Shown here one piece after another: positions 13,464 to 42,899 of a DNA stretch of 45,446 bases (within the stretch, counting starts at the first letter, position 1; the number at the start of each line of letters is the position of its first letter). The DNA comes from a virus. A model generated the notes under the pieces. The model was given only the letters and a program-made list of their open reading frames with translations. It was not told the DNA's origin and made no database searches. The DNA is taken from the IMG/VR virus record IMGVR_UViG_3300027805_000022, positions 1-45,446 of that record, one strand, 5' to 3'. Both the position numbers and the translations under genes were made by a program.

Positions 13464-13673
13464 TCATCTTGGCAATAGAATTGCTTTTATTGCGTCTGGA
13501 TCTTCTTTCGGACATGTTTCATATTCACCATAATACCATTCGGCTTCCTGTTTTTTTACATAAAGTTGATGTGTTTTTCTTGGAGTTGTATAATCTCCTT
13601 CATAACCATCAACTATAACCAATGTTTCTGGATCTTCTTTTTGTAGTATTTTTAATATTTCTTTAACTTTCAT
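13464..13673 (-). CDS. conserved small phage protein (IVDGYEGDY family)
   Basis: 69 residues. The start M-K-V-K-E-I-L-K-I-L-Q-K-E-D-P-E-T-L-V-I, then V-D-G-Y-E-G-D-Y, is common in phage genomes as a small protein of unknown role with a helix-strand core. It overlaps the RNA ligase gene by 11 nt. Confidence 0.85.
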   Translation of the reverse strand: MKVKEILKILQKEDPETLVIVDGYEGDYTTPRKTHQLYVKKQEAEWYYGEYETCPKEDPDAIKAILLPR

Positions 13674-14748
13674 AATGTTTTTTAATCATTTTAAACCATT
13701 GTATTTTAGTTATTTCTTTATTATCTAATATAGAAAACGCATAAGCTGAATTATCACCACAATTTCTTTTTATCATTTCGGCTTGTTCTTTTCTGGTTTC
13801 TACCTTTCTTATATCATGAATTATTTCGAGTAAATGGTCAATATATTTTTTTGCCTTTTCTCCTGAATTGCAAATTTTTTCAATCTCATCTTTTAATTGA
13901 ACTGCTATTTCAAAATCAAATTCGGTTTCAATTACTTTACTAAAATTTTCAGCCGATGGCATTTCTTTTTCTATATAAAAATCAATTAAATTATCGGTAG
14001 AATTTAATTCGGATTTCACAGTATGAATGAATCTATACCAATCCGATTTCATTTTTATTCTATTTTGATTGTTATTGTAAGAAATTACAACTCCTTCTTT
14101 ACCTTTCCAATGTTTTATATTTTCTGCAATTTTAGAAATATCATTAGTATCTAGAAAATTGTAAAATTGTGGCATTGGAATCGGTCCAATCTTTCTCCAG
14201 ATGTCGGTTAAATCAGCAGAGGAAACTACTACCATTCCATTTTTGTTTATTGCTCCAATAAGATAAAACTCTAACTGTTGTGGTCTTATTACGATAACAT
14301 TACTTGGAGTTACTATTTCAAACAATAAAGTGATGTGTTGATTTTCTTTTAAGAACTCAACAACTTTAGGGTATCGTTCCGGAAGTAATTCAAAATCTTT
14401 TGCATTTTCTTGAGTTTTATAAGAAACGGTTCCTCTGGTTCTCATAGAAAATTGACCATTTACATAATCAGCAATTAAAAGGGAACCATCCTTTTTTTCT
14501 TCATATTTCAAATCATTAAAGTTTTTAGGATCCGGATAACAATCAGGTTTTTCTTCATAGTTAAAGAACTTTGGAAAACCAGAAGACAATACGTTTCCTT
14601 CTCTATCAACAATTAAAGATCTATAAAAAAGATTGTTTTTATTCCATTTTGCATCTCTCTCCGGAGTTATCAACCAACAATATAATCCACAGAATTCATC
14701 TGGAGTGATATTAAAATATCCCTCTTCTATAGGAAGACTAACTTTCAT
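13663..14748 (-). CDS. RNA ligase, T4 Rnl1-like
   Basis: 361 residues, close to the 374 of T4 RNA ligase 1. Motif I is E-E-K-K-D-G-S-L (Lys of K-D-G is the AMP-linked nucleophile, about residue 85). Later come R-T-R-G-T, F-E-I-V-T-P (motif III region), E-G-V-V-I (motif IV) and R-I-K-M-K-S-D-W-Y (motif V). The enzyme seals broken RNA using ATP; in T4 it repairs tRNA cut by a host anticodon nuclease. No polynucleotide kinase is visible nearby. It is the first gene of a leaderless transcript. Confidence 0.93.
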   Translation of the reverse strand: MKVSLPIEEGYFNITPDEFCGLYCWLITPERDAKWNKNNLFYRSLIVDREGNVLSSGFPKFFNYEEKPDCYPDPKNFNDLKYEEKKDGSLLIADYVNGQFSMRTRGTVSYKTQENAKDFELLPERYPKVVEFLKENQHITLLFEIVTPSNVIVIRPQQLEFYLIGAINKNGMVVVSSADLTDIWRKIGPIPMPQFYNFLDTNDISKIAENIKHWKGKEGVVISYNNNQNRIKMKSDWYRFIHTVKSELNSTDNLIDFYIEKEMPSAENFSKVIETEFDFEIAVQLKDEIEKICNSGEKAKKYIDHLLEIIHDIRKVETRKEQAEMIKRNCGDNSAYAFSILDNKEITKIQWFKMIKKHYES

Positions 14749-20945: not shown

Positions 20946-21458
20946 TTAATAATTATCTACTGCATTTTTTTCTGCTTGTTTTTCAAATTTATTAAGGTTT
21001 TCGTCTATATGTTCTTGAAGATGTTTTTCAATTGCTAAATTCATTTTTTCTTCTGCATTTTTATCTTCTGATGTAAAAACATTCTCTTCTTCTTGATCTC
21101 TAAATTGCCAACTGACTAAAATTATACCACTAACATATGTTTCACGGTGATGACGTATACTTGGACCGTGATATTGACCCCATTCATCACTATCAGTTTC
21201 AACATCTGCACCAAAACTAACATCATCAAAACTAACACCCTCAGATTGAATTTCTTCCATACTCCATCCGTATGATTTTGAATACTTTTCAAGAACATCT
21301 TGTGGAAAAAATTCAGCTGGAACCGTGAAATAATAACTATTAAGTTTTACTCCACCATCAAGAAAATTATTAAAATCAAGTCTGTTTGATTTAATATTTA
21401 AATTTTCATGAATTGAATTATATAAATTTTCCAATAATATTTGATCTTTGTTTTTCAT
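20946..21458 (-). CDS. tagged protein of unknown function
   Basis: 170 residues. The tag MKNKDQILLENLYNSI occupies residues 1-16, with L-L-E ending at residue 10. The remainder is acidic with a beta-rich middle (YYFTVPAEFFPQDVLEKYS, then GIILVSWQFRDQ) and a helical end (AEEKMNLAIEKHLQEHIDEN). No fold recognised. It is the first gene after a late-type AAGTAAAT box and would be packaged with the other tagged proteins if the head-targeting idea is right. Confidence 0.9.
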   Translation of the reverse strand: MKNKDQILLENLYNSIHENLNIKSNRLDFNNFLDGGVKLNSYYFTVPAEFFPQDVLEKYSKSYGWSMEEIQSEGVSFDDVSFGADVETDSDEWGQYHGPSIRHHRETYVSGIILVSWQFRDQEEENVFTSEDKNAEEKMNLAIEKHLQEHIDENLNKFEKQAEKNAVDNY

Positions 21459-22312: not shown

Positions 22313-23326
22313 TTAGTCTTTATAGTTTCTGTTGATTAGTTTAAATCCAAGTGGGCGACGAGAAGAATAACCTTTTGGGTAAGATGATGGTCTTACTACT
22401 ATTCCTTCTCCTTCCAATCCACTAGGATATTTTTGTTTATCTGCTAATTCTTGTAATTTTTGTAGAGGGTTTGTCCACAACTTAACTGTGGCCGCTACTT
22501 CTAACTTTGATACTAAAGGAACAATATCGCAATGTAAAGAATTTTCGCAAAAATCTTTCATCTCTTCGTAGGTCATGTATTTTTTGTTTTCGCTAATCTG
22601 AAATACGAAAATCTTAACATCTTCTAGTTTAAGCTGATTTCGCTGAATTCCATTTCCACAAAGTTCCCCTTGAATTGTCCCTGTCCAATTTTCTGGAATG
22701 GTAAGTTTTCTTGCCGCTTTCCAAAGTGTATTGTTTTCGGTTTCTTTCTTGGAAAGATTTCTGGTACAAACTTGTGTAAGTACACCATCTTCAACAATTA
22801 AAGTTATTGAACTTCCGTCTAGTTTGCTTGTTACTGTAATATGAGAATCGTGATTGAGAACCTTTTCGACTAGATTTGGATCATTCAGTCCATTGTCTTC
22901 ATCGGTTTTAGAGATAATACTTGTTGGAAAATCACACAATGTTTCTCCAGAAAGATTAGCAGGAATTTCTTTAATGTATTTAGTAATACCTATTATCTCG
23001 GTTAGATCTGTACCTATATCATAATCTTTAAAAGGAGAAGCATCAAACTCATTGAGTGAAATTACCAAACCTGACGAAAATTCTCCACGCAATTTAATAT
23101 TTTTAATTCTAATTGGTTTGTTTGGATTTTTAGAGTCTTCTAAAAAAGCTGACCAAGTATATCGAGGAACAATAGTATCAATCGTAATAAAAACAACCTT
23201 ATCTCCCTCTTTGTGGATTCCTTTTTTTACTACTGTTTGCCAACCCAAAACTTCAGCGATTTCTAAAGAATCAGCATTGTTATGTTTTCTAATATTTTTT
23301 ATAACTTCTATTGATGCGAGTTTCAT
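22313..23326 (-). CDS. RNA ligase, Rnl5-like (OB fold then ligase domain)
   Basis: 337 residues. Residues 1-105 form an N-terminal OB-like domain (KLASIEVIKNIRKHNNADSL, then VFITIDTIVP). The nucleotidyltransferase domain follows: motif I is T-S-K-L-D-G-S-S near residue 167 (Lys nucleophile), then R-N-L-S, G-E-L-C-G-N-G-I-Q, motif IV E-G-E-G-I-V-V-R-P near 308, and motif V G-F-K-L-I-N-R-N-Y at the end. An OB fold before the ligase domain is the layout of Deinococcus Rnl (Rnl5), which seals nicks with an RNA 3' side. It is the second RNA ligase in this window, again leaderless. Confidence 0.92.
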   Translation of the reverse strand: MKLASIEVIKNIRKHNNADSLEIAEVLGWQTVVKKGIHKEGDKVVFITIDTIVPRYTWSAFLEDSKNPNKPIRIKNIKLRGEFSSGLVISLNEFDASPFKDYDIGTDLTEIIGITKYIKEIPANLSGETLCDFPTSIISKTDEDNGLNDPNLVEKVLNHDSHITVTSKLDGSSITLIVEDGVLTQVCTRNLSKKETENNTLWKAARKLTIPENWTGTIQGELCGNGIQRNQLKLEDVKIFVFQISENKKYMTYEEMKDFCENSLHCDIVPLVSKLEVAATVKLWTNPLQKLQELADKQKYPSGLEGEGIVVRPSSYPKGYSSRRPLGFKLINRNYKD

Positions 23327-23818: not shown

Positions 23819-24334
23819 TTATTTATTTAATTTTACTGCACCCTTACTTCCAGAACGAACCAATCCTGTTCCTGCTGCTTGAATTGTTCCAGATTGTTGT
23901 AAATGTTTTTTAAAGGTATTAAACAAATCTTGTTTTAATGCATCGGTGTCCTGTATACCTAATCCTAAATTTTTAACGTCTCTTGCGACACCTGTTAACA
24001 TACTATTTAAATATTGTGTCAATCTTTGTCCGGTATATTGACTATCTACTTCGTTTCGTTTTTTTGAAAGTTCACCTTGTTTTATTTGTTGGTCTTTATA
24101 TGATTGTAATGAACGAGGATCTTGTCCCTTTGCTCCTGCAACAGCACCGATTCCCATTTGTTTGGCTTTAGAAAATCCTTTTTGTGCGCCAATTACAGCT
24201 TTTTTAGCAGCACCACCAATTCCTCTGACAACATCACCACCCATGGTTTTAAAAAAAGAACCTAAATCTTCATCTAATTGTTGTTCAATTACTTTGTTAT
24301 AGGCTTCGTTCAATAAAATATCATCTTTTTTCAT
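23819..24334 (-). CDS. likely tagged internal head protein, Gly/Ala/Lys-rich
   Basis: 171 residues. The start MKKDDILLNEAYNKVIEQ is a looser form of the shared tag, with L-N-E ending at residue 10. Residues about 32-75 are rich in Gly, Ala and Lys (GGAAKKAVIGAQKGFSKAKQ), typical of basic internal or DNA-associated virion proteins. The rest is helical and ends with a basic Gly/Ser tail. It has a late-type promoter (TATAAATA at 24341-24348). A head protein role is inferred. Confidence 0.85.
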   Translation of the reverse strand: MKKDDILLNEAYNKVIEQQLDEDLGSFFKTMGGDVVRGIGGAAKKAVIGAQKGFSKAKQMGIGAVAGAKGQDPRSLQSYKDQQIKQGELSKKRNEVDSQYTGQRLTQYLNSMLTGVARDVKNLGLGIQDTDALKQDLFNTFKKHLQQSGTIQAAGTGLVRSGSKGAVKLNK

Positions 24335-30915: not shown

Positions 30916-31572
30916 TTAATTAACCTTATAAAAATCATCCCAAACTGACTCACTAAGACCAAAATCAACCAATACTACTGTTGGAACACCTTCTCTAATA
31001 ACTTCGCCGTAGGAATTTACCCTCCCAAAGTCACCCGGATACTTCATTCCAAAATTCATAATCATATCCGTTAATGAATTTAAAAATTCATTGTCATTTA
31101 CTTTCTGACTAAATTCGTCGTGTAATTCTTTTAATTGTTGAGAATTTAAATATTTTCTTCTGGAACTATTATTCAATGTTTCCATTACACGAAGAATATC
31201 TTGAACTTCATTTAAACTTATTCCGGTTAATTGTTTAAATCTATTTGGTGTTAATTTTTTAGCCAATTCCATTTCAACCCAAAAGTGATCATCGTTTGTA
31301 TCAAATATCTTTGCAACTATATCAGACATTCTTTGCAATCCCCAATCCGATTCTATTGAATTTTGACCGATTCCCTTTTTATTCTTGGCTATTTTTAAAA
31401 CTTTTTCTTCATCAACCTTATATACAACTCTGGCACTACCGGAAGATATTTTCTGCAATCTTTCATTAGCATATTTCAATTTACCATTATATGATTTAAT
31501 GTTATTAAATTCTTCAAAAGAAAAACTTACAGGATAAGCCATTTCCTTTATATATTGTTTAAAAGATTTCAT
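30916..31572 (-). CDS. tagged protein-kinase-like protein
   Basis: 218 residues. The start MKSFKQYIKEMAYPVSF has I-K-E ending at residue 10, the position of the cut in the main tag. The body shows kinase-like parts: a Gly-rich loop S-S-G-S-A-R-V-V-Y-K-V near 43-53, V-L-K-I-A-K near 58 (Lys), P-G-D-F-G-R-V-N near 180, and V-V-L-V-D-F-G-L-S-E near 204 (the D-F-G-like motif). It is short, ending soon after the D-F-G, so it may be a small-molecule or protein kinase fold of unusual size. ATGA overlap upstream. Confidence 0.82.
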   Translation of the reverse strand: MKSFKQYIKEMAYPVSFSFEEFNNIKSYNGKLKYANERLQKISSGSARVVYKVDEEKVLKIAKNKKGIGQNSIESDWGLQRMSDIVAKIFDTNDDHFWVEMELAKKLTPNRFKQLTGISLNEVQDILRVMETLNNSSRRKYLNSQQLKELHDEFSQKVNDNEFLNSLTDMIMNFGMKYPGDFGRVNSYGEVIREGVPTVVLVDFGLSESVWDDFYKVN

Positions 31573-34095: not shown

Positions 34096-34491
34096 TTATT
34101 CAGATTTCCAAATACTACGATAATCTTCGCTGTGCTCATCATCAAAATATATATCACTCATTCTGTTTTCTATAGCCAAATTCTTCAATTCTCTTAATTG
34201 TTTTTGATTCGGTTTCATTTTATTATTATGACAATATAATTCGCTTCCAATATATGTCAACCTCATCCAACCTTTTATAAAAAGTAAATCGTATACCTGA
34301 TTTGCAAACATCATATCTTTTGTCGGCATATTGTATCTATCCTGTAAAATTTTTTTACCGGATGAGAAATGACCCTCTCCTTTATTTGAAATTATTTCCC
34401 CTGATGGATTCATCCATGCATACAAAGAACCAGATTCATTTAGAATATCTAAATACAAATTCTCCAGTAGTATTTGGTCTTTGCTTCTCAT
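34096..34491 (-). CDS. tagged protein (LYAWMNPSGE...GWMRL family)
   Basis: 131 residues. Tag MRSKDQILLENLYLDILNES at 1-20 with L-L-E ending at 10. The body begins L-Y-A-W-M-N-P-S-G-E near 23 and has I-K-G-W-M-R-L near 72; this pattern appears in many T4-like phage proteins of unknown function, often alone and untagged. Here it is a fused second part behind the tag. Confidence 0.88.
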   Translation of the reverse strand: MRSKDQILLENLYLDILNESGSLYAWMNPSGEIISNKGEGHFSSGKKILQDRYNMPTKDMMFANQVYDLLFIKGWMRLTYIGSELYCHNNKMKPNQKQLRELKNLAIENRMSDIYFDDEHSEDYRSIWKSE

Positions 34492-34507
34492 TATATTATT
34501 TTAATAT

Positions 34508-35074
34508 TTATGCTTTAAAATTATAACCTTTTCTTTTAAGAATTGTAACAAGCTTACTACCTTCCCACCAACCATCAGGTTTAGCAGAACCAGATTTAAA
34601 ATAGTCTTCATCTTCCAATCCCTTATAATCTTTATCATGATACATTGATGATGGATCGTATGGTGAATATTTCCTCCAATCATATTCTGTATTTGTATCG
34701 TAAAAAACAAATATCACACCATCATTTCTTATTTCATTCCAAGTAACATCTTTTTGGTGTTTATTATTTTTTGATGCTAGACACCACAACATTGCATTTA
34801 CGGCTTTATCAAATGTTTTTTTATCAGCGGCAAAAACAGGAATCTCTCTTTCATCCTTGTATTCGGATTCATCGTCGAAATACCCTTCCTCATCATGAAA
34901 GGTATTTACAAGAGAATCGTCATCTTCCAAACCACCACCAAAAATATCAGAATCTTTTAATGAATATTTAAATTTACTTTTACATGTACCGTGATAAAGA
35001 GTTCTTCCAGTATTTTCTTTTAAAAGAATTCTTTCATAAATACCTTCCAGTAATATTTGGTCTTTGTTTCTCAT
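34508..35074 (-). CDS. tagged ADP-ribosyltransferase-like protein
   Basis: About 188 residues from ATG at 35074 (MRNKDQILLEGIYERILLKE), set by ATGA overlap with the upstream gene. After the tag, T-G-R-T-L-Y-H-G-T near residue 22 is the L-Y-H-G-T start of PARP/Tpt1-like ADP-ribosyltransferases. E-I-P-V-F-A-A-D-K-K-T-F-D-K-A-V near 78 fits the second strand and A-rich helix. The rest is acidic and ends with a basic strand. NAD use is inferred. T4 packages Alt, an ADP-ribosyltransferase, in its head, so this is a close functional parallel. Confidence 0.78.
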   Translation of the reverse strand: MRNKDQILLEGIYERILLKENTGRTLYHGTCKSKFKYSLKDSDIFGGGLEDDDSLVNTFHDEEGYFDDESEYKDEREIPVFAADKKTFDKAVNAMLWCLASKNNKHQKDVTWNEIRNDGVIFVFYDTNTEYDWRKYSPYDPSSMYHDKDYKGLEDEDYFKSGSAKPDGWWEGSKLVTILKRKGYNFKA

Positions 35075-35736
35075 TTTAATCCTTTTATCCACATATAATC
35101 TTCATTGCATGTTGGGTGTTGTTTTAGTATTGCTTCTTCAGAACTAAAAGAAGATATGTTTCCAGACTTTTGAGTGAGAGTTTTTATTGATTTAAAATCA
35201 TCCCTATTCATAACTTCTTTCATAGCATTTATTCTTGTTTTTGTAAAGTCTGGAGTTCCTTTATTATTACTTAATCTTTCATCTCCACACCACCAAGAAG
35301 GCAATCCTTTTTTATAAACATATTCTGGATGTTTGTGTGGGTTGTATGTTACAGATTCCCATGTTCCATTTGATAATTTATTTCTTATTTCATTAAAAGG
35401 AAAATTCACATCAATTAATTGACCATACAATTTTATATATGGTTGCTTGATACCTTTAACTTCACTTCTTATTGTTCTATCTATAAGAGAATGATTTATA
35501 ATACTTTTTACATTTTTAATATGTAAAGTCGAAACATCACCAACATAACCAGCACCATCAACACTTATAGACCATTTCATATAATCGGGATGGTTTTTAC
35601 CAACCTTTATAACAGGATGTATTTCAACCATTTTTCCTATAAATTCTTTACCATCTTCCAAATTTTTTCTTTGAAATTTTTCAAACAATATGAGTTCGTA
35701 TAAATTTTCTAAAATAATTTGGTCCTTATTTTTCAT
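35071..35736 (-). CDS. tagged protein of unknown function
   Basis: 221 residues. The tag MKNKDQIILENLYELILFEK has I-L-E ending at residue 10. The body is strand-rich with V-D-G-A-G-Y-V-G-D-V-S near 66 and W-E-S-V-T-Y-N-P-H-K-H-P near 127, then L-P-S-W-W-C-G-D-E-R. The His/Trp/Cys cluster may be an active site but has no family I know. ATGA overlap on both sides. Confidence 0.85.
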   Translation of the reverse strand: MKNKDQIILENLYELILFEKFQRKNLEDGKEFIGKMVEIHPVIKVGKNHPDYMKWSISVDGAGYVGDVSTLHIKNVKSIINHSLIDRTIRSEVKGIKQPYIKLYGQLIDVNFPFNEIRNKLSNGTWESVTYNPHKHPEYVYKKGLPSWWCGDERLSNNKGTPDFTKTRINAMKEVMNRDDFKSIKTLTQKSGNISSFSSEEAILKQHPTCNEDYMWIKGLK

Positions 35737-36269
35737 GGGGTAGGTGTTGGATATCCAGTATAATTTACATTTTTATCTATATCACTTTCTGCTTTTAAAC
35801 CATGTTCTCCAAATTTGTTCATTTTCAAATTAAAAACTTTTTTTCTTGCATTTATTGCAGATGGAGTAAGAGTATCACTATATATTTTTGATATTCCTAT
35901 TTTCTGACCATATTTCGCAATAAGTCTATACATTACCTGACCATACCCTTTATTTCTGTGTTCAGGTGAAATTGTTATGTTTTTTATAATAAATCTATCA
36001 TTATCTTTTTTAAATATAGTTTCTCCAATTAATTTTCTGGTTTTGGGATATGCTATATATAATGCATAATAGCTTTCGTCATTCCCTTCATAATCTTCAG
36101 ATTCGACATATTCTAGATTATAAATAATATCGGGTAATTTTTTATCTTCAATTTCTTTTTTTGTAGGAGATGGATGCTCTTCGAATTCATTAGAACTTGG
36201 AAAAACATTTTCTTCTAAAAGAATATTTTCGTATATACTTTCCAGTAATATTTGGTCTTTGTTTTTCAT
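35733..36269 (-). CDS. tagged GNAT acetyltransferase (1)
   Basis: About 178 residues from ATG at 36269 (MKNKDQILLESIYENILLEE), 10 nt after the upstream stop; a longer frame to 36308 includes the upstream gene's end and is unlikely. The GNAT fold is clear: I-T-I-S-P-E-H-R-N-K-G-Y-G near 100 (acetyl-CoA loop, R-x-x-G-x-G), then L-I-A-K-Y-G-Q-K. It would acetylate an amine on a protein, RNA or small molecule. Second tag-type site L-L-E near 18 could be a further cut. Confidence 0.9.
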   Translation of the reverse strand: MKNKDQILLESIYENILLEENVFPSSNEFEEHPSPTKKEIEDKKLPDIIYNLEYVESEDYEGNDESYYALYIAYPKTRKLIGETIFKKDNDRFIIKNITISPEHRNKGYGQVMYRLIAKYGQKIGISKIYSDTLTPSAINARKKVFNLKMNKFGEHGLKAESDIDKNVNYTGYPTPTP

Positions 36270-36279
36270 TACATTGTAA

Positions 36280-36672
36280 TTATCTAGATGACCATCCATC
36301 GATATCATCGGTCAATCTTGGTATATATCCACCAATACTTTGTGCAAACTGTTCTCCCTCATAACTTCTACGCGATGAATGTTCTGGTTCTGGTTGATTA
36401 TTTTCTTTAGCCCATTCCACAGCAGTTTCCCATATATAAGTCCCAACACCCTGTCTTCTGTAAGGATCTCCTACATATATTTTTTCGACTTCTCCATCGT
36501 CTTTACTCCATTCAATATAACCAACTGCTCCATTTTTATTAAAAAAATCCAAACGATTATTAACCTCATCTTCGGTATGTTTATAGTTCAAATTATCCCA
36601 ATCCAAATTATTTTCTTCTAAAAAAATTCTTTCATACAAATTCTCCAGTAATATTTGGTCTTTGTTTTTCAT
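36280..36672 (-). CDS. tagged GNAT acetyltransferase (2)
   Basis: 130 residues. Tag MKNKDQILLENLYERIFLEE. G-Y-I-E-W-S-K-D-D-G near 51, then V-G-D-P-Y-R-R-Q-G-V-G-T-Y near 66-78, is the GNAT motif A (R-x-x-G-x-G). It is a short, single-domain enzyme next to another GNAT gene but clearly different in sequence after the tag. It overlaps the next gene by ATGA. Confidence 0.9.
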   Translation of the reverse strand: MKNKDQILLENLYERIFLEENNLDWDNLNYKHTEDEVNNRLDFFNKNGAVGYIEWSKDDGEVEKIYVGDPYRRQGVGTYIWETAVEWAKENNQPEPEHSSRRSYEGEQFAQSIGGYIPRLTDDIDGWSSR

Positions 36673-38204
36673 ATTATATTAAAGTATTCTTTGAAACTAA
36701 AATTAACAAAAGATTCATTAAAAACGGAATCAATATATTTTTTTATTTCTTCATCGTTTGGTTCTTGATTTGAATTTAATAATTCCAAAACATGATCTTG
36801 TGCTTTTTTTAACAATATTCCGAGTTTTGGTTTTTGATATAATTCAGGATACCATTGTATAAGTTTACCACCATCAATATATTGCTTAATTCTTTTTCTC
36901 AGATCTTCACTATCACCACCCAAGTTGGAAACCTTTTCTTCGGCTCTTTTTATTTTTTCTTCGAATTGTTTTTTATTAAAATGTGAAAGTCCTCTTGATG
37001 CTTCGTCACAATAAGCAACAGATTTTACGATATTCCAAGATGGATCAAGTATAAGTCTAGACAATGTTTTTATATTAAGATTATCAAGATTATGAACAAG
37101 CATATGTTTTGCAACAGCTTGTAAAATATTTTTTTTATCTTCGGCTGATAAATTATTAAATACCAATCTTTTAAAAATATTTTCTACTATAGAAACACCC
37201 GCTTCTTCGTGTCCATGATATGTTGATTGTCCTTCTTTCTCACCCCTTGTTGTTGCTTTTCCGAAATCATGAAATAATATCGCAAGATTTATAACAGGAT
37301 CTGTAAATGGAGAAACAGACAAGCATTCATATATATGACCAAGAACTCTGGATTCTCCTTCGGGATGATGTTTAGGATTATGCATAAATCCTTCCATAGA
37401 AGTAAACTCCGGTAGAATATCATGTAATATTTTATTGTCTTGTAACATTTTTAAAAACTGCATCAATGTTTTACCACTCTTAGCGGATTTATAAAATTCT
37501 TTTGCAATACTTTCAGATGATATAAGTTCTGGATTAGAAAGAATACCCTTCAATTCAACAGCAGCATTTCTTGTTTGATCATCTAAATTAAACCCCATCT
37601 TTGCAGCAAATCTAAAAACTCTTAAAATTCTTGTAGCATCTTCCATGAATCTTTTCTTTGGATCACCAACAGCACGAACAATTTTGTTTTTTAAATCATC
37701 TAAGCCATTTTGATGGTCTATTATAGTTCCATTCTCATCTATACCAAATGAATTAATTGTTAAATCTCTTCTTTCTGTATCTTTTTGAAAAGAATCTGTT
37801 TCTGTTGATACGTTGTTTTGTCTTCCAATATTACCAGAATCGGTTCTAAACTTAGCCAAATCATAATGATAATCTCTCCATTTAATATCGTAAACAGGTT
37901 GTGAATCGTTTTTTGATATATTTCTTACTTCAAATTTATCTCCCAATTTTTCAAATGGTATATTTGTTGCAAGATCAACATCATCAACTTCATTACCCAT
38001 CAACAAATCCCTTGGAACACCGCCAACTATATATATTTCTCCTTGTGGGAAAATAGATTTAATATTCTTCATCAAATCAACAGCAACTCTTAATTCTTCG
38101 GAATTTTGAAGAGCATCATTCCATTTACCGGAAAAATCCTCATCTTGTTCTTTTATTATTTTTAAATAAAGATTTTCCAATAATATTTGATCTTTGCTTC
38201 TCAT
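36669..38204 (-). CDS. tagged tRNA nucleotidyltransferase/poly(A) polymerase with HD domain
   Basis: 511 residues. After the tag (MRSKDQILLENLYLKIIKEQ), G-E-I-Y-I-V-G-G-V-P-R-D-L-L near 55-69, then V-D-D-V-D-L-A-T at 73-80 (metal-binding D-x-D), R-R-D-L-T-I-N-S-F near 150 and A-T-R-I-L-R-V-F-R-F-A near 197 give the whole class II CCA-adding/poly(A) polymerase head. An HD domain follows: H-H-P-E-G-E-S near 283 and L-F-H-D-F-G-K near 320, with a later K-H-M-L-V-H. Because it is full length and tagged, the phage may inject a tRNA- or RNA-tailing enzyme. Confidence 0.92.
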   Translation of the reverse strand: MRSKDQILLENLYLKIIKEQDEDFSGKWNDALQNSEELRVAVDLMKNIKSIFPQGEIYIVGGVPRDLLMGNEVDDVDLATNIPFEKLGDKFEVRNISKNDSQPVYDIKWRDYHYDLAKFRTDSGNIGRQNNVSTETDSFQKDTERRDLTINSFGIDENGTIIDHQNGLDDLKNKIVRAVGDPKKRFMEDATRILRVFRFAAKMGFNLDDQTRNAAVELKGILSNPELISSESIAKEFYKSAKSGKTLMQFLKMLQDNKILHDILPEFTSMEGFMHNPKHHPEGESRVLGHIYECLSVSPFTDPVINLAILFHDFGKATTRGEKEGQSTYHGHEEAGVSIVENIFKRLVFNNLSAEDKKNILQAVAKHMLVHNLDNLNIKTLSRLILDPSWNIVKSVAYCDEASRGLSHFNKKQFEEKIKRAEEKVSNLGGDSEDLRKRIKQYIDGGKLIQWYPELYQKPKLGILLKKAQDHVLELLNSNQEPNDEEIKKYIDSVFNESFVNFSFKEYFNII

Positions 38205-38215
38205 TATATTATTTA

Positions 38216-39217
38216 TTATGTGCTTTCACCTTCTCCACTACCCTCTCCACCAAATCCATATCCAAAACCGACACCCCAGTATCCACCTATTCTATTACCA
38301 ATAAAAGTATCAATTGGTTTTTTTATACCACCAACTCTATTCTTTCTTTTCTTTTTTCTTTTTTTACTTTTAGATTTTTTAGACTCTGTAAAATATTTTT
38401 TAAATGTTATATAAGAATCTCCTAATTGTCCTTTATAAAAAGAAGGAGTTTGATCCACGTCCATCTGACGAACCTGTTGGGTTGCCGCTGATACTGGTTG
38501 TTCTATATCACTTCTTTCCAAACCTTCAACATTTCCGCTTTGCATATCTTCTAATTTTATTTCATATCTTTTTCCGGTATATGTGGAAATATTATATATA
38601 GATTGAGATGCACGTAAATCCTCTTCTTCCCCATAAACACCTTCTTGTTCCAATGCACGATTTATTCCACTAGCAACAATTTTTAATTGTCCAGATGTTA
38701 ATTCATTTACTTCTATATGGTTTTGGTGAACTCTTGACCATCCCCATTCCTTTATTGCAAATTCTCTACCATCTCCTCCTCTACCTCTAGCAAGATGAAC
38801 CATCTCATCAATCGGACCATTCATGGTAGTTTGTGTTTTAAGATAATTTATAAGAGCATCATAAGGATCATTTTCAATCTCTTCTCTTTTTTCATCATCG
38901 TCTCCAATACCAAGTTTTTCTATTATAATTCCAATAATTTCATCTATATGATTATCCAAATCTGCTGGTTGATCATCAGAATATATATCAAAATATCCTA
39001 AAACTTCTCCTGCACAACGATCTTGTACATACATCTCATGGTTCATATCTCCAATATCACCATCCGCATACATTGGATCTCCACTTTCATCAAACCAATA
39101 TTCTCCCTTTATATATAAAGGTTCCATTTCGTTTTCTTCTGTTTCATCATCTATATCATCGGAATACAATCCTTCTAGATATAAATTCTCCAGTAATATT
39201 TGATCTTTGCTTCTCAT
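38216..39217 (-). CDS. tagged protein with acidic linker and Gly-rich tail
   Basis: 333 residues. Tag MRSKDQILLENLYLEGL. Residues 18-36 are acidic. Near 150, E-W-G-W-S-R-V-H-Q-N-H-I-E-V-N-E-L and S-G-Q-L-K-I-V-A-S-G-I resemble parts of marine phage proteins with unknown role. Near 275 there is F-K-K-Y-F-T-E-S, then a very basic run of Lys and Arg, and the last 30 residues are Gly/Tyr-rich. The basic stretch could bind DNA in the head. Confidence 0.85.
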   Translation of the reverse strand: MRSKDQILLENLYLEGLYSDDIDDETEENEMEPLYIKGEYWFDESGDPMYADGDIGDMNHEMYVQDRCAGEVLGYFDIYSDDQPADLDNHIDEIIGIIIEKLGIGDDDEKREEIENDPYDALINYLKTQTTMNGPIDEMVHLARGRGGDGREFAIKEWGWSRVHQNHIEVNELTSGQLKIVASGINRALEQEGVYGEEEDLRASQSIYNISTYTGKRYEIKLEDMQSGNVEGLERSDIEQPVSAATQQVRQMDVDQTPSFYKGQLGDSYITFKKYFTESKKSKSKKRKKKRKNRVGGIKKPIDTFIGNRIGGYWGVGFGYGFGGEGSGEGEST

Positions 39218-39230
39218 TATATTATTTTAA

Positions 39231-39238
39231 TATTTATA
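39231..39238 (-). promoter_or_regulatory. late-type promoter (TATAAATA) of the tagged operon
   Basis: Minus strand CAAGTATAAATATT, 13 nt before ATG at 39217. The genes from 39217 down to at least 36280 follow on the same strand with short gaps or overlaps. The reverse-facing early promoter of the plus-strand gene starts 2 nt away. Confidence 0.75.
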
Positions 39239-39239
39239 C

Positions 39240-39268
39240 TTGACTGGAAAGTTTTCTCAATGTAATAT
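39240..39268 (+). promoter_or_regulatory. early-type promoter for the 39275-39748 gene
   Basis: TTGACT (39240-39245), 17 nt spacer, TAATAT (39263-39268), then 6 nt to ATG at 39275. Confidence 0.82.
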
Positions 39269-39274
39269 CATCGT

Positions 39275-39748
39275 ATGAATATTTTTATTCTTGATAACTG
39301 TCCAATCAAAGCTGCTCAATATCATTGTGATAAACACACAATAAAAATGATTCTGGAGCATACTCAGATGCTTTCCACTGCCATTCGTGTTCATTCAAAT
39401 GACACGGTGGAAGGAGTTTATAAGATGGCACATCTGAACCATCCTTGTTCCAAGTGGACACGACAAACTCGAAACAACTTTAATTGGTTGTGTGAAATGA
39501 CCGAGGAATTGTTTCAAGAATATACTCGTCGCTATGGAAAACAGCACAAGTCTTATCCTATTTTTCAAACATGCAGGAATCATGCCAATATGATTCCAGA
39601 AGGAGAATTAACACCCCATGCTCAGGCAATGCCCCCCGAATACAAAGACGCTGATCCAGTCAAGGCATATAGAACCTATTATATTAAAGACAAGAAAGAA
39701 TTTTCAAAATGGAAGATGGGTAATACTCCAGATTGGTTTATTGTTTAA
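39275..39748 (+). CDS. conserved phage protein (HCDKHTIKMILE family)
   Basis: 157 residues. I-F-I-L-D-N-C-P-I-K-A-A near the start, then Y-H-C-D-K-H-T-I-K-M-I-L-E near 18, H-P-C-S-K-W near 57 and W-L-C-E-M near 71 are the marks of a family widespread in phages and some bacteria, with no assigned role that I know. The His/Cys/Asp content suggests metal binding. The codon use is a little more GC-rich than the tagged genes around it, and it is the only gene here with an early promoter between late operons. Confidence 0.9.
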   Translation: MNIFILDNCPIKAAQYHCDKHTIKMILEHTQMLSTAIRVHSNDTVEGVYKMAHLNHPCSKWTRQTRNNFNWLCEMTEELFQEYTRRYGKQHKSYPIFQTCRNHANMIPEGELTPHAQAMPPEYKDADPVKAYRTYYIKDKKEFSKWKMGNTPDWFIV

Positions 39749-39751
39749 AGA

Positions 39752-40495
39752 TTATTCCAGTTCATTTTGTAACCAAGTTTTTGTTGGTGTTTTTTCCTGA
39801 GATCCTTTTTCTCTTTCAAAATAAATGTGTGGTCTTCCATCTAAATCAAATTTTTTTATAGAATTTAATAAATGTTTTACAATATTTTCTGCTTGTTTTG
39901 GGTTTTTTGCTTGATAGGAATCTATTAAATCATATTTATTTGGAAAATATCCACCTTCTTGATGCCCCATAAATAATTTTGTATTATCATATAATGAAAC
40001 AAATAACGGATAATTTTCTATACTTTCTACATCAGATGGATCGTTGTAAGTATTACGAATATTATTAATATCTTTCCATAAATTATCATATTGGTCTTGG
40101 TCCATTGATCTATATATGTGTTGCATAGTAAAATTATCAAAACCGTTATCAAGGATACCCTGTTCGAACTTATTGACTTTTAAAAGTTCCGCGAGTTTTG
40201 TATTATTAGGAAGGTATTTCTTTTTTAAAAGATCCAAACTTATTTTAGCTATTTTTCTATCGTTTTCTTCTGTATCAACATCTGCAATATAATTGTGGAC
40301 GATATCATCATATTTATCATATAAAAAAGAATTTGGATAACCTTGACCGTGTGGAAAATTTGTTTCCCCTAATTCAAGATCTCCCATTTCGTTTTCTTGA
40401 TTTTCTTCGTTTTCTTGATTTTCTTCGTTTTCTTTATTTTCTAAAATTTTTGATGTATACAAATTCTCCAATAATATCTGATCTTTGCTTCTCAT
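39752..40495 (-). CDS. tagged protein with Asn/Glu repeat linker
   Basis: 247 residues. Tag MRSKDQILLENLYTSKILEN, then a simple-sequence linker of N-E-E-N-Q-E repeats (residues about 20-38) encoded by a short tandem repeat near 40395-40440. The rest is a helical, acidic domain with H-I-Y-R-S-M-D-Q-D-Q near 128 and G-G-Y-F-P-N-K near 183. Not recognised. It carries a TATAAATA late promoter 9 nt upstream of its ATG. Confidence 0.87.
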   Translation of the reverse strand: MRSKDQILLENLYTSKILENKENEENQENEENQENEMGDLELGETNFPHGQGYPNSFLYDKYDDIVHNYIADVDTEENDRKIAKISLDLLKKKYLPNNTKLAELLKVNKFEQGILDNGFDNFTMQHIYRSMDQDQYDNLWKDINNIRNTYNDPSDVESIENYPLFVSLYDNTKLFMGHQEGGYFPNKYDLIDSYQAKNPKQAENIVKHLLNSIKKFDLDGRPHIYFEREKGSQEKTPTKTWLQNELE

Positions 40496-40504
40496 AGTTT
40501 TATA

Positions 40505-40512
40505 TATTTATA
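40505..40512 (-). promoter_or_regulatory. late-type promoter (TATAAATA)
   Basis: Minus strand TATAAATATATAAAAC, 9 nt before ATG at 40495. It lies in a divergent late promoter region with the plus-strand gene at 40536, which is preceded by TAAATATATAAA. Confidence 0.7.
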
Positions 40513-40535
40513 TTTATTGTGTGTAAATATATAAA

Positions 40536-41000
40536 ATGACAAATAAAGATATAATGTTATTAGAAAATGCTTATAAAAAAGTATCAGAAAGTGTTAGAAA
40601 TAAATTTACTCATGAAATGGGCTGTATTCAATATGAATATTATGCTACTATGGAAGATGGAGGTCCAGTGGAAAAATTTAATGAAATGTTTAAACAATAC
40701 GAACAAAATATATCTAAAAATGCAAATAGATCAAAATATATAAAAACCTCTATTTCTCTAATGATAGAAATGAAAACTATATTTAAAAATCTTGATTGTG
40801 TAAAAAAACTCATATCATTATATGAAAAATATCCAAATGTACTAGACGATAAAATATATTTTTATGTGTATAGAGCATTGAATGAATATTTTAATATAGA
40901 ACCGAGTGTTGAAAATATTGCTGCTAATGATATTCTCGATAGAAATTTTATAGAAGCATATGAAAATTTACAAGGAACTATTGGTAATTTTGGACTTTAA
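40536..41000 (+). CDS. tagged helical protein, unknown function
   Basis: 154 residues. The start MTNKDIMLLENAYKKVSES is a variant of the tag with L-L-E ending at residue 10. The remainder is all-helical and lysine-rich. Part of a plus-strand run of tagged genes. Not recognised. Confidence 0.85.
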   Translation: MTNKDIMLLENAYKKVSESVRNKFTHEMGCIQYEYYATMEDGGPVEKFNEMFKQYEQNISKNANRSKYIKTSISLMIEMKTIFKNLDCVKKLISLYEKYPNVLDDKIYFYVYRALNEYFNIEPSVENIAANDILDRNFIEAYENLQGTIGNFGL

Positions 41001-41002
41001 AT

Positions 41003-41010
41003 TATAAATA
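41003..41010 (+). promoter_or_regulatory. late-type promoter (TATAAATA)
   Basis: TATAAATA 6 nt before ATG at 41017, in the 16-nt gap after the previous stop. Confidence 0.7.
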
Positions 41011-41016
41011 TATAAA

Positions 41017-41388
41017 ATGAATAACAAAGATACCATGATGCTCGCAGAAGCATATTCCAATATTTTAAAAGAAGAAATTGCAGATTTTAACAATAACGGT
41101 TCACCATTGGACAACATGAGTCCAGAAAGATTTAGAACAGAAAGAATAGATTCCGATGAAGAAGACAGGGCAGAAGAAAATGATAAGTTTTCACAATTGG
41201 AAATAGGATTAGGAAGACCAAATCCTTCGGTAGAACAGGGAGATCTATTGCAGGGTTTATCAGAGAATGATGCCAGAGAACTATTAAACCATCTAAATCA
41301 AAAGGGAGAAGAAAACGAAGAGAATTGGGTATTGAAGGACAATCTTATTCTACAACTTTTCGATCTTCTAAGAAACCCAAATATTTAA
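41017..41388 (+). CDS. tagged acidic protein, unknown function
   Basis: 123 residues. MNNKDTMMLAEAYSNILKEE is the tag variant with L-A-E ending at residue 11. The body is acidic and Asn-rich, with D-N-M-S-P-E-R-F near 31 and a helical C-terminus. Unknown function. Confidence 0.82.
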   Translation: MNNKDTMMLAEAYSNILKEEIADFNNNGSPLDNMSPERFRTERIDSDEEDRAEENDKFSQLEIGLGRPNPSVEQGDLLQGLSENDARELLNHLNQKGEENEENWVLKDNLILQLFDLLRNPNI

Positions 41389-41431
41389 ATTTTTTTATAA
41401 CACACTTACCTTTTAGAAGTAAATATTAAAT

Positions 41432-41752
41432 ATGCACGATACTGATCAAAAAAATTTGCAAAACATATATATCAATCTATATGAAAATTTTGAACAAAAC
41501 GATAATAACATTATAAATGATATTGTTTCGTTTTTCGGAGAAGAAAACGGAATACCAGAATATATAGGAAAAACTTTTATTGCTACAATACAAAATAACG
41601 GAATAGAAAATATAAATGATACCTATGAATATGTGAATAGTTTTATTAAAAAGTTGGGTATGCTTAAAGCAGGAAGTGATGTTGTTAGAGATAACACTTT
41701 AAATGCCTGTATCAAAACAAAAGAATATATACAAAGATTACAAAATTCTTAA
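41432..41752 (+). CDS. distantly tagged small protein, unknown function
   Basis: 106 residues. The start MHDTDQKNLQNIYINLYENF keeps the D-Q and the I-Y of the tag but lacks L-x-E at 8-10; L-Y-E ends at 18 instead. The rest is helical. The change in the tag suggests a drifting copy. Upstream box AAGTAAATATTAAATATG resembles late promoters. Confidence 0.72.
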   Translation: MHDTDQKNLQNIYINLYENFEQNDNNIINDIVSFFGEENGIPEYIGKTFIATIQNNGIENINDTYEYVNSFIKKLGMLKAGSDVVRDNTLNACIKTKEYIQRLQNS

Positions 41753-41760
41753 AAAATATA

Positions 41761-41789
41761 TTGACGAGTTAGGGTGTTTCGGTTACTAT
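41761..41789 (+). promoter_or_regulatory. early-type promoter for the 41797-42138 gene
   Basis: TTGACG (41761-41766), 17 nt spacer, TACTAT (41784-41789), then 7 nt to ATG at 41797. Confidence 0.78.
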
Positions 41790-41796
41790 GGTGTGT

Positions 41797-42138
41797 ATGA
41801 ACTACCTCAAAATAGAAAAAAATAAAAATAACGTAATCAACGGAAAACTCACAAACGACAAGGGTTCTTTGAATATTCCCATTACCTTAATTGGAAGTGG
41901 AATCTTGAATATTTCAAAAGACAAAGAATTGAATTTGGATCCAGAAAAAATAAATGTATTCAAAAATAATAAATTTGAATATAGTATGAAAAACATCAAA
42001 TTGAGCAATTTCTTCGGAAAAAATGTTATTGAAGGTGTTAATGATAGCGATTCTTTTTCTGCGGTAATCGTTGATACGAGTGAAATTAAAAATATGTGGA
42101 CTAATGATTATAATGGAATTTGGAATATTGATGTTTAA
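41797..42138 (+). CDS. hypothetical beta-rich small protein
   Basis: About 113 residues from ATG at 41797 (MNYLKIEKNKNNVING). An ATG at 41788 overlaps the -10 box, so it is unlikely to be used. It is strand-rich (SLNIPITLIGSGILNIS, then FSAVIVDTSEIKNMW). No family recognised. It ends by overlapping the convergent metalloprotease gene by 4 nt, with the terminator lying inside that gene's 3' part. Confidence 0.78.
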   Translation: MNYLKIEKNKNNVINGKLTNDKGSLNIPITLIGSGILNISKDKELNLDPEKINVFKNNKFEYSMKNIKLSNFFGKNVIEGVNDSDSFSAVIVDTSEIKNMWTNDYNGIWNIDV

Positions 42139-42899
42139 ATTTCAATGTATTTATAAGTTTTAACACTTTCAGAAAAACTCTTAATGTAATCTTGGTAAAG
42201 ATCCATTAAGAGTTTTTCGTTTTTATCAAAACCAAGTCTTTCTAATAAATTCATAACAAAATTTTCTATATTCTTGGGATCGTTATTGTTCCGATAATTA
42301 TATTCCAATGCATATGCTTCCAATTCTGCGGGGTGCATGAAATATTCTTTAAATTGTTTCTTCCAGTATTCTATAGTTTTTTCTCCCCCTAATGTTAATG
42401 TTGGAGGGATCATTTCTTTATCTTCGTATATTTGTCTGACATGTACCATTTCATGAAATAGAACATATTTTATTTCATTTCTAAATTCGTCTATGTTTTT
42501 TACAATGTCATTTAGTGTTATTATAATCCTTACGAGTGATTGTTGATTATTATAAAAAGCACCTAGGTTGAAATTTTGATTTAAATTTGGATCAATCTGA
42601 ATATAAACTTCTATTTTTTGAAGATCAAATGGAATATCTTTAAGGTTATTTAAAAAATTACTATTTATAAAATTGTTTAAATCATTTTGTATCTTTGATT
42701 TATATTGTCTATATTTAACAGAATCTTCAAAATTGTTTATGAGCAAGTCTATCTCTTTTGATTTACTAAAAAGTCCCAATTTATTCATACCCTTTTCTAA
42801 AAGAATATAGAAATCATCTAGAAAACTTTTTTTTACAGATTCAGATAAAACATATCTTTGATAAAGATTCTCCAATAATATTTGATCTTTGCTTCGCAT
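42135..42899 (-). CDS. tagged HExxH metalloprotease-like protein
   Basis: 254 residues. The tag MRSKDQILLENLYQRYVLSE has L-L-E at 8-10. V-L-F-H-E-M-V-H-V-R-Q at 146-156 contains the zinc-binding H-E-x-x-H, and H-P-A-E-L-E-A-Y-A-L-E-Y near 189-200 could offer the third ligand Glu. The fold looks like a small zincin. Packaged with the DNA, it would be a protease delivered into the host. The codons for the last 28 residues contain a terminator hairpin. Confidence 0.85.
   Translation of the reverse strand: MRSKDQILLENLYQRYVLSESVKKSFLDDFYILLEKGMNKLGLFSKSKEIDLLINNFEDSVKYRQYKSKIQNDLNNFINSNFLNNLKDIPFDLQKIEVYIQIDPNLNQNFNLGAFYNNQQSLVRIIITLNDIVKNIDEFRNEIKYVLFHEMVHVRQIYEDKEMIPPTLTLGGEKTIEYWKKQFKEYFMHPAELEAYALEYNYRNNNDPKNIENFVMNLLERLGFDKNEKLLMDLYQDYIKSFSESVKTYKYIEI
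42173..42217. terminator. bidirectional terminator inside the metalloprotease 3' end
   Basis: AAAAACTCTTAATG pairs with CATTAAGAGTTTTT over 14 bp, loop 17 nt. T runs on both strands can stop transcription in either direction, so it can end the plus-strand gene at 41797. It is coding sequence on the minus strand. Confidence 0.8.

What the first reader, a model, noticed from the sequence alone, without database searches (positions are those of the whole stretch)
34508..35074. Tagged ADP-ribosyltransferase-like protein, parallel to T4 Alt
T-G-R-T-L-Y-H-G-T followed by I-P-V-F-A-A-D...A matches the start of an ART fold, and it follows the tag. T4 Alt is the classical head-packaged ADP-ribosyltransferase. 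This one is much smaller and unrelated in sequence, which suggests the same strategy arose with a different enzyme.
Basis: inference. Interest (0 to 1): 0.7.

Follow-up and report, generated by a model that had tools for sequence, protein, structure and literature searches.

The report
Head-tagged small phage ADP-ribosyltransferase-like protein
A phage gene fuses a short label, of the kind used to load proteins into virus heads, to a small domain folded like enzymes that attach ADP-ribose to other molecules, so the phage may inject it into its host as T4 does with Alt; it belongs to a phage protein family that the databases searched here do not name.

Summary
The ORF at 34508-35074 (-) is a 188-aa protein that starts with a tag, MRNKDQILLE, found ten times in the window (0 expected), followed by an LYHGT domain. 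Direct searches found no relative of the body. Degenerate DNA patterns then pulled out an unnamed phage family in IMG/VR (24 members besides the window). A profile of 23 of them hits the window protein at 87 bits; the best of 2000 shuffles scores 8.6. AlphaFold2 with this alignment gives pLDDT 79, pTM 0.72. The closest solved folds are ADP-ribosyltransferases (ARTs), Tpt1/KptA first. His28 and Glu154 are invariant and position 81 is Phe/Tyr, as in the H-Y-[EDQ] clade rather than Alt's R-S-E clade. The tag fits a T4-type capsid-targeting leader: 10 residues ending L-x-E, a second L-x-E near residue 20, leaders swapped between homologues exactly at the Glu, and gp21-type protease plus gp23-type capsid protein in all seven long tag-sharing contigs. 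A second ART-like family carries the same tag in sister phages. Virion packaging and NAD chemistry are inferred, not shown. Head-packaged ARTs are a known kind (T4 Alt; PMC9503650); this is a new family of that kind.

The parts
34508..35074 (-). Tagged ART-like gene, 188 aa, including stop codon
   Evidence: ORF listing; family profile hit 87 bits
35080..35083 (-). AGGA ribosome-site-like stretch, 5 nt upstream of the ATG
   Evidence: Read from the sequence
35045..35074 (-). Tag residues 1-10, MRNKDQILLE, predicted capsid-targeting leader ending in the first L-x-E site
   Evidence: 10 copies in window, 0 expected; consensus from 101 tagged proteins; T4 rules from PMC9026906
35015..35044 (-). 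Tag residues 11-20, GIYERILLKE, ending in a second predicted L-x-E cleavage site five residues before LYHGT
   Evidence: L-x-E-type motif at residues 14-24 in 73 of 101 tagged proteins against 14% in control stretches; [LI]xE within 12 residues of LYHGT in 16 of 25 family members against 4.2% control
34985..34999 (-). LYHGT, residues 26-30, strand 1 of the ART-like domain with invariant His28
   Evidence: Invariant in 23 aligned family members; strand 24-31 in the model
34823..34837 (-). VFAAD, residues 80-84; position 81 is Phe or Tyr in all members, candidate for the Tyr position of H-Y-[EDQ] ARTs
34613..34615 (-). Glu154, invariant, candidate catalytic Glu
   Evidence: 23 of 23 members
34511..35011 (-). 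ART-like domain, residues 22-188
   Evidence: AlphaFold2 pLDDT 79.4, pTM 0.72; best solved-structure alignments are ARTs
34096..34491 (-). Tagged protein of unknown function, next downstream
   Evidence: Tag match; no Pfam or PHROG hit
35071..35736 (-). Tagged protein of unknown function, next upstream, overlaps the ART-like gene by 4 nt
   Evidence: homologues in other tagged clusters
35733..36269 (-). Tagged GNAT acetyltransferase
   Evidence: Pfam Acetyltransf_1 1.9e-7, tag
36280..36672 (-). Tagged GNAT acetyltransferase
   Evidence: Pfam Acetyltransf_1 1.3e-8, tag
36669..38204 (-). Tagged CCA/poly(A)-type nucleotidyltransferase with HD domain
   Evidence: Pfam PolyA_pol 6e-24 and HD 1.3e-6; PHROG tRNA nucleotidyltransferase 1.4e-59
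38216..39217 (-). Tagged protein of unknown function
   Evidence: Tag; homologues beside the FHGT-type ART in L031 and L065
39752..40495 (-). Tagged protein of unknown function
   Evidence: Tag
42135..42899 (-). Tagged zincin-like protein with HEMVH motif
   Evidence: Pfam Peptidase_M91 0.0013, below cut-off; tag

Best explanation
The gene encodes a head-loaded ADP-ribosyltransferase-like effector of a T4-type (gp21/gp23) phage. The N-terminal 10-20 residues act as a capsid-targeting leader that brings the protein into the prohead core. The gp21-type prohead protease then cuts after an L/I-x-E Glu (E10 and/or E20), leaving a compact ART-like domain whose first strand, LYHGT, begins about five residues after the second site. 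The mature protein leaves with the DNA and, using His28, Phe81 and Glu154 to hold and split NAD, would put ADP-ribose on a host (or defence) molecule at the very start of infection. Shown here: the tag and its recurrence, family membership, the predicted ART fold, conservation of His28 and Glu154, leader swapping at a Glu, and gp21/gp23-type genes in relatives. Inferred: packaging, cleavage, injection, NAD use and target.
For: Family: profile of 23 IMG/VR members finds the window protein at 87 bits, shuffles at most 8.6; invariant L26 Y27 H28 G29 T30 A82 E154. Fold: AlphaFold2 with the family alignment pLDDT 79.4, pTM 0.72 against 32.7 without it; VIA-align best rows Tpt1/KptA Z 6.8, rmsd 2.7-2.8 over 83 residues, then Arr, ART toxins, DarT, pierisin, with the proteasome row at Z 2.1. 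Sequence: the A4 profile's best solved-structure hits are Tpt1, E 1.4e-4; the Pfam families most often hit by members are Tpt1/KptA (8 of 23) and PARP (4 of 23), sub-threshold; PHROG RNA 2'-phosphotransferase 3.7e-4. Leader: T4 gp21 cuts after L/I-x-E and the first 10 residues of IPIII suffice for targeting, with residues 4 and 7 for targeting and 8 and 10 for processing (PMC9026906); the tag has K4, I7, L8, E10 nearly fixed; [LI]xE just before LYHGT in 16 of 25 members whose leaders differ, control 4.2%; homologues of window 30916-31572 are 88% identical from the Glu onward but carry different leaders; L101 and L104 neighbours share MIKLKxLLxE-type leaders. S77 protease and Gp23 in all seven tag-sharing contigs of 100 kb or more. 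A second ART-like family (ART-PolyVal 2e-6, PARP 1.5e-4) carries the same tag in sister phages.
Against: Foldseek alone gives no significant match (best PDB hit DarT, E 2.2; best viral E 0.04), and Z below 8 can reflect a common arrangement. Influenza haemagglutinins appear in the same profile search at E 0.003, so the 1.4e-4 Tpt1 hit is not decisive alone. The window protein is a divergent member: 13 of 39 conserved columns are changed, including two family-invariant Gly, and residues 48-62 are modelled poorly, so activity could be altered or lost. The distances between H28, F81 and E154 could not be measured. The window is a 45-kb fragment without head genes. Leader and S77 presence do not correlate significantly across long family contigs (5 of 7 against 1 of 5, Fisher p 0.24). 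The seven tag-sharing contigs carry only 1-4 tags each by the pattern used. No proteomics exists for this phage.
Confidence: 0.72

Rival explanations
1. Head-packaged, but the ART-like domain is no longer a transferase: it binds NAD, ADP-ribose or nucleic acid as a catalytically dead decoy or inhibitor of host defence.
For: Many conserved family positions are changed in the window protein, including two family-invariant Gly, and EPGDY became EDEDY.
Against: The residues expected to do chemistry (H28, F81, E154) are kept.
Confidence: 0.13
2. It is a Tpt1/KptA-like RNA-repair enzyme (2'-phosphotransferase) delivered together with the tagged CCA-type nucleotidyltransferase to mend host tRNAs cut by defence nucleases.
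For: Closest solved fold and best profile hit are Tpt1; the same window has a tagged CCA/HD enzyme and two RNA ligases.
Against: The match covers only the C-terminal ART half of Tpt1 (chain residues 89-177); the N-terminal RNA-binding lobe is missing, and the Arg residues near the HGT of Tpt1 are not kept in the family. Many members stand alone or in multidomain proteins without an evident repair context.
Confidence: 0.07
3. The tag is not a head-loading leader but another shared N-terminal element, such as a localisation signal in the infected cell or an assembly helix, and the ART-like protein acts late in infection.
For: The window itself shows no head gene; the tag is modelled as a helix, and conservation goes on past E10 to Y13.
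Against: L-x-E at fixed places, leader swaps at the Glu, and gp21/gp23-type genes in all long relatives.
Confidence: 0.13
4. The ART resemblance is superficial: a different fold that happens to share YHGT.
For: Foldseek finds no significant hit.
Against: ARTs fill nearly all VIA-align rows above the proteasome; the Pfam and PHROG families most often hit by members include Tpt1 and PARP; LYHGT sits on the predicted first strand.
Confidence: 0.07

Closest known systems
T4 Alt (head-packaged RNA polymerase ADP-ribosyltransferase)
   Same: ART superfamily domain; N-terminal propeptide with an L/I-x-E-type site; expected to ride in the head with the DNA
   Different: 683 against 188 aa; no sequence similarity; Alt is of the R-S-E clade (PMC9503650), this family has His in strand 1 and an H-[FY]-E pattern
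Tpt1/KptA RNA 2'-phosphotransferase, ART domain
   Same: Closest solved fold (Z 6.8) and best profile hit over the LYHGT..I..GL stretch
   Different: Lacks the N-terminal lobe; Arg residues around the motif are not conserved; an invariant Glu is present
T4 internal proteins IPI-IPIII with capsid targeting sequence
   Same: Short leader ending in L/I-x-E joined to unrelated cargo proteins
   Different: Leader sequence differs; here one tag is shared by at least ten proteins in a 45-kb fragment, several with recognisable enzyme domains
ART-PolyVal / PARP-like phage ARTs (H-Y-[EDQ] clade)
   Same: H-Y-E-like active-site pattern; the sister FHGT-type tagged family matches these models
   Different: The window family has its own conserved VFAADK and EPGDY motifs and no Pfam, PHROG or NCBIfam model above cut-off

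Membership tests
ART superfamily | Split-sheet ART fold | tested here: met
   AlphaFold2 pTM 0.72; VIA-align rows nearly all ARTs, best Z 6.8 against 2.1 for the proteasome; moderate strength, Foldseek alone not significant
ART superfamily | Conserved NAD-binding residue in strand 1 (His or Arg) and further active-site residues | tested here: met
   H28 and E154 invariant, F/Y at 81 in all 23 members; spatial arrangement not measured
ART superfamily | NAD-dependent ADP-ribosyl transfer | not testable with these tools
   Needs a biochemical assay
T4 Alt/VIP2 family (R-S-E clade) | Arg in strand 1 and detectable sequence similarity to Alt | tested here: not met
   His at that place; no HMM hit, best BLASTP E 0.9 against T4 Alt
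Tpt1/KptA | N-terminal lobe plus C-terminal ART lobe | tested here: not met
   Alignment covers Tpt1 residues 89-177 only; the window protein has only the 20-residue tag in front
Tpt1/KptA | Conserved Arg residues of the active site (assignment recalled, not looked up) | tested here: inconclusive
   Arg residues next to HGT and before YVHLS in Tpt1 face non-basic family consensus positions
T4-type capsid-targeting leader | Leader of about 10 residues ending in L/I-x-E at the N-terminus of otherwise unrelated proteins | tested here: met
   MRNKDQILLE-type tag on 10 window proteins and 101 aligned tagged proteins; leader swap at Glu
T4-type capsid-targeting leader | Genome encodes a gp21-type prohead protease and gp23-type capsid protein | tested here: inconclusive
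   S77 protease not in the 45-kb window fragment; both genes present in all seven tag-sharing contigs of 100 kb or more
T4-type capsid-targeting leader | Protein found processed inside the virion | not testable with these tools
   No proteomics available

The most novel reading that the evidence does not exclude
These phages keep an interchangeable, single-tag cargo system in which different ART-like families (the YHGT type here, the FHGT type in sisters) and other enzymes, including a tRNA-end-repair-type nucleotidyltransferase, GNATs and a zincin, are exchanged behind one head-loading leader, so each virion injects a variable enzyme set that includes an ART family not described before.
Probability: 0.4. 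Interest if true: 0.68.

Novelty: new member of a known kind. Interest (0 to 1): 0.52.

Why it matters
It adds a phage ART family with no model in Pfam, PHROGs or NCBIfam and no tblastn match in 50,697 phage records, and offers a sequence rule (leader ending in L/I-x-E just before the domain) that predicts which proteins of uncultured T4-type phages are carried in the head. That would turn a list of hypothetical proteins into candidate injected effectors acting in the first minutes of infection, where host takeover and defence evasion are decided.

Tried and rejected
Single-sequence AlphaFold2 was useless (pLDDT 32.7). tblastn of the whole protein and of the body against 50,697 phage records gave nothing, nor did four family members; the method works, as the tagged nucleotidyltransferase finds 438 records. 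Peptide-pattern scans of IMG/VR and GTDB with the body alone found no relative, and a search of 47 tag-sharing records with the body found none. A tag-plus-HGT pattern returned only the FHGT family plus chance hits. Three GTDB hits to the family pattern: the two that could be read are not convincing members (L165 a short chance frame, L167 a different ART-like frame), and L166 showed no readable frame. The haemagglutinin rows were judged chance. Membership in the Alt family was rejected (no similarity, His instead of Arg); KptA was rejected for the missing lobe. The leader/S77 association across family contigs was tested and is not significant (p 0.24).

Full report
What was checked. The ORF reported at 34508-35074 is real: minus strand, ATG at 35074, stop at 34508, 188 aa, AGGA five nucleotides upstream, overlapping the preceding tagged gene by four nucleotides. 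The window is an unnamed IMG/VR virus record of 45,446 bases. The tag pattern is present ten times (0 expected), mostly in a block of same-strand genes at 34096-42899 with one more copy at 20946-21458. Differences among the ten copies are mainly synonymous.

Finding the family. Whole-protein and body-only searches found nothing in phage records, GTDB genomes, IMG/VR peptide-pattern scans, Pfam, PHROGs or NCBIfam. Degenerate DNA patterns for YHGT followed by VFA-x-D, and for the YHGT..I..GL..VG core, recovered a clear family. Its consensus is TLYHGT..D...SI...GL.P.VG.FV..aY ... [VI]FAADK..L.KAV.AM ... [VI]T..DI..hG.L..I.D ... vEPGDYy ... D..LtG..L.rFL. A profile of 23 members, made without the window protein, hits it at 87 bits; the best of 2000 shuffles scores 8.6. 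Identity to single members is 18-34%. The window protein keeps 26 of 39 well-conserved columns, including H28, F81, A82, E154 and D157, but has lost others, including two family-invariant Gly.

Fold. With the family alignment AlphaFold2 gives pLDDT 79.4, pTM 0.72; LYHGT is on the first strand of the domain and the tag is a helix. VIA-align puts Tpt1/KptA first (Z 6.8, rmsd 2.7-2.8, 83 residues), followed by rifampicin ADP-ribosyltransferase, ART toxins, DarT and pierisin; CC0527 (Z 5.6), an Rhs toxin (Z 5.2) and the proteasome (Z 2.1) are the rows whose titles do not name an ART. Foldseek alone is not significant. Independent sequence evidence points the same way: Tpt1 tops the profile search of solved chains (E 1.4e-4), and Tpt1/KptA and PARP are the Pfam families most often hit by members, below threshold. 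I read the active site as H28, F/Y81, E154, an H-Y-[EDQ]-like pattern; this assignment is inference from motif order, because distances could not be measured.

The tag. T4 gp21 cuts after L/I-x-E, and the first ten residues of IPIII suffice for head targeting, with residues 4 and 7 important for targeting and 8 and 10 for processing (PMC9026906). The tag MRNKDQILLE is ten residues long, with nearly fixed K4, I7, L8 and E10 over 101 aligned tagged proteins; the search pattern itself demanded much of positions 4-13. A second L-x-E-type motif near residue 20, not selected by the search, occurs in 72% against 14% of control stretches. In the ART-like family, whose other members have quite different leaders, [LI]xE lies within 12 residues of LYHGT in 16 of 25 against a control rate of 4.2% (members are homologues, so the p-value overstates independence). 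A window neighbour (30916-31572, MKSFKQYIKE|MAYPV) and its L026 homologue (MKNKDQILLENLYTE|MAYPV) are 88% identical from the Glu on but carry unrelated leaders; a small KYKRM protein shows the same with several leaders. S77 protease and Gp23 capsid protein are found in all seven tag-sharing contigs of 100 kb or more. Across long contigs of the ART-like family the link between leader and S77 is only suggestive (p 0.24).

A second tagged ART. In at least seven sister contigs the same tag precedes a different 156-aa FHGT protein with sub-threshold ART-PolyVal (2e-6) and PARP (1.5e-4) matches, in clusters that share other tagged genes with the window. Profile comparison aligns only the first strand of the two families, so the phages appear to load at least two distinct ART-like families behind one tag.

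Most likely working. Inferred chain: synthesis, recruitment to the prohead core by the leader, cleavage after E10 and/or E20, ejection with the DNA, NAD-dependent modification of an unknown host or defence molecule. Steps shown are only the sequence, family, fold and leader anatomy.

Relation to the known. Head-packaged ARTs are known from T4 Alt, and a survey argues that about 44% of phage ARTs it recovered are in contexts suggesting head packaging, in several clades (PMC9503650). T-even internal proteins are diverse cargo behind one targeting sequence (PMC3012670). This protein is therefore a new family within a known kind; it is not an Alt homologue and not a KptA by architecture.

Noticed in passing
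36669-38204 (-): Tagged CCA/poly(A)-type nucleotidyltransferase with an HD domain; if head-loaded it could repair tRNA 3' ends right after injection. The window also has two RNA ligases (13663-14748, 22313-23326).
   Followed up: partly
30916-31572 (-) and locus L026: Natural leader swap: 88% identical bodies from the Glu on, with MKSFKQYIKE in the window and MKNKDQILLENLYTE in L026.
   Followed up: yes
L025 2852-3082, L012 2629-2859, L024 12759-13001, L049 13134-13400, L046 2224-2490: A small KYKRMSAGMD..DIAKK protein with different leaders, all ending in a Glu right before the same body; in L049 and L046 two leader types seem joined.
   Followed up: partly
L006, L007, L012, L025, L031, L049, L051, L065: A second, 156-aa FHGT ART-like family behind the same tag; no tblastn match in GenBank phages.
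   Followed up: partly
35733-36269 and 36280-36672 (-): Two adjacent tagged GNAT acetyltransferases just upstream in the same gene block.
   Followed up: no
42135-42899 (-): Tagged zincin-like protein with HEMVH, weak Peptidase_M91 match (0.0013).
   Followed up: no
23819-24334 (-), 40536-41000 (+), 41017-41388 (+): Tag variants such as MKKDDILLNEAYNKV, MTNKDIMLLENAYKKV and MNNKDTMMLAEAYSNIL; similar MRxxxKLLEEAYKKV leaders occur in L126.
   Followed up: no
L095, 850-aa ORF: A multidomain phage protein with three HGT/HAT-type ART-like motifs in one chain, one of them of the window's family.
   Followed up: no
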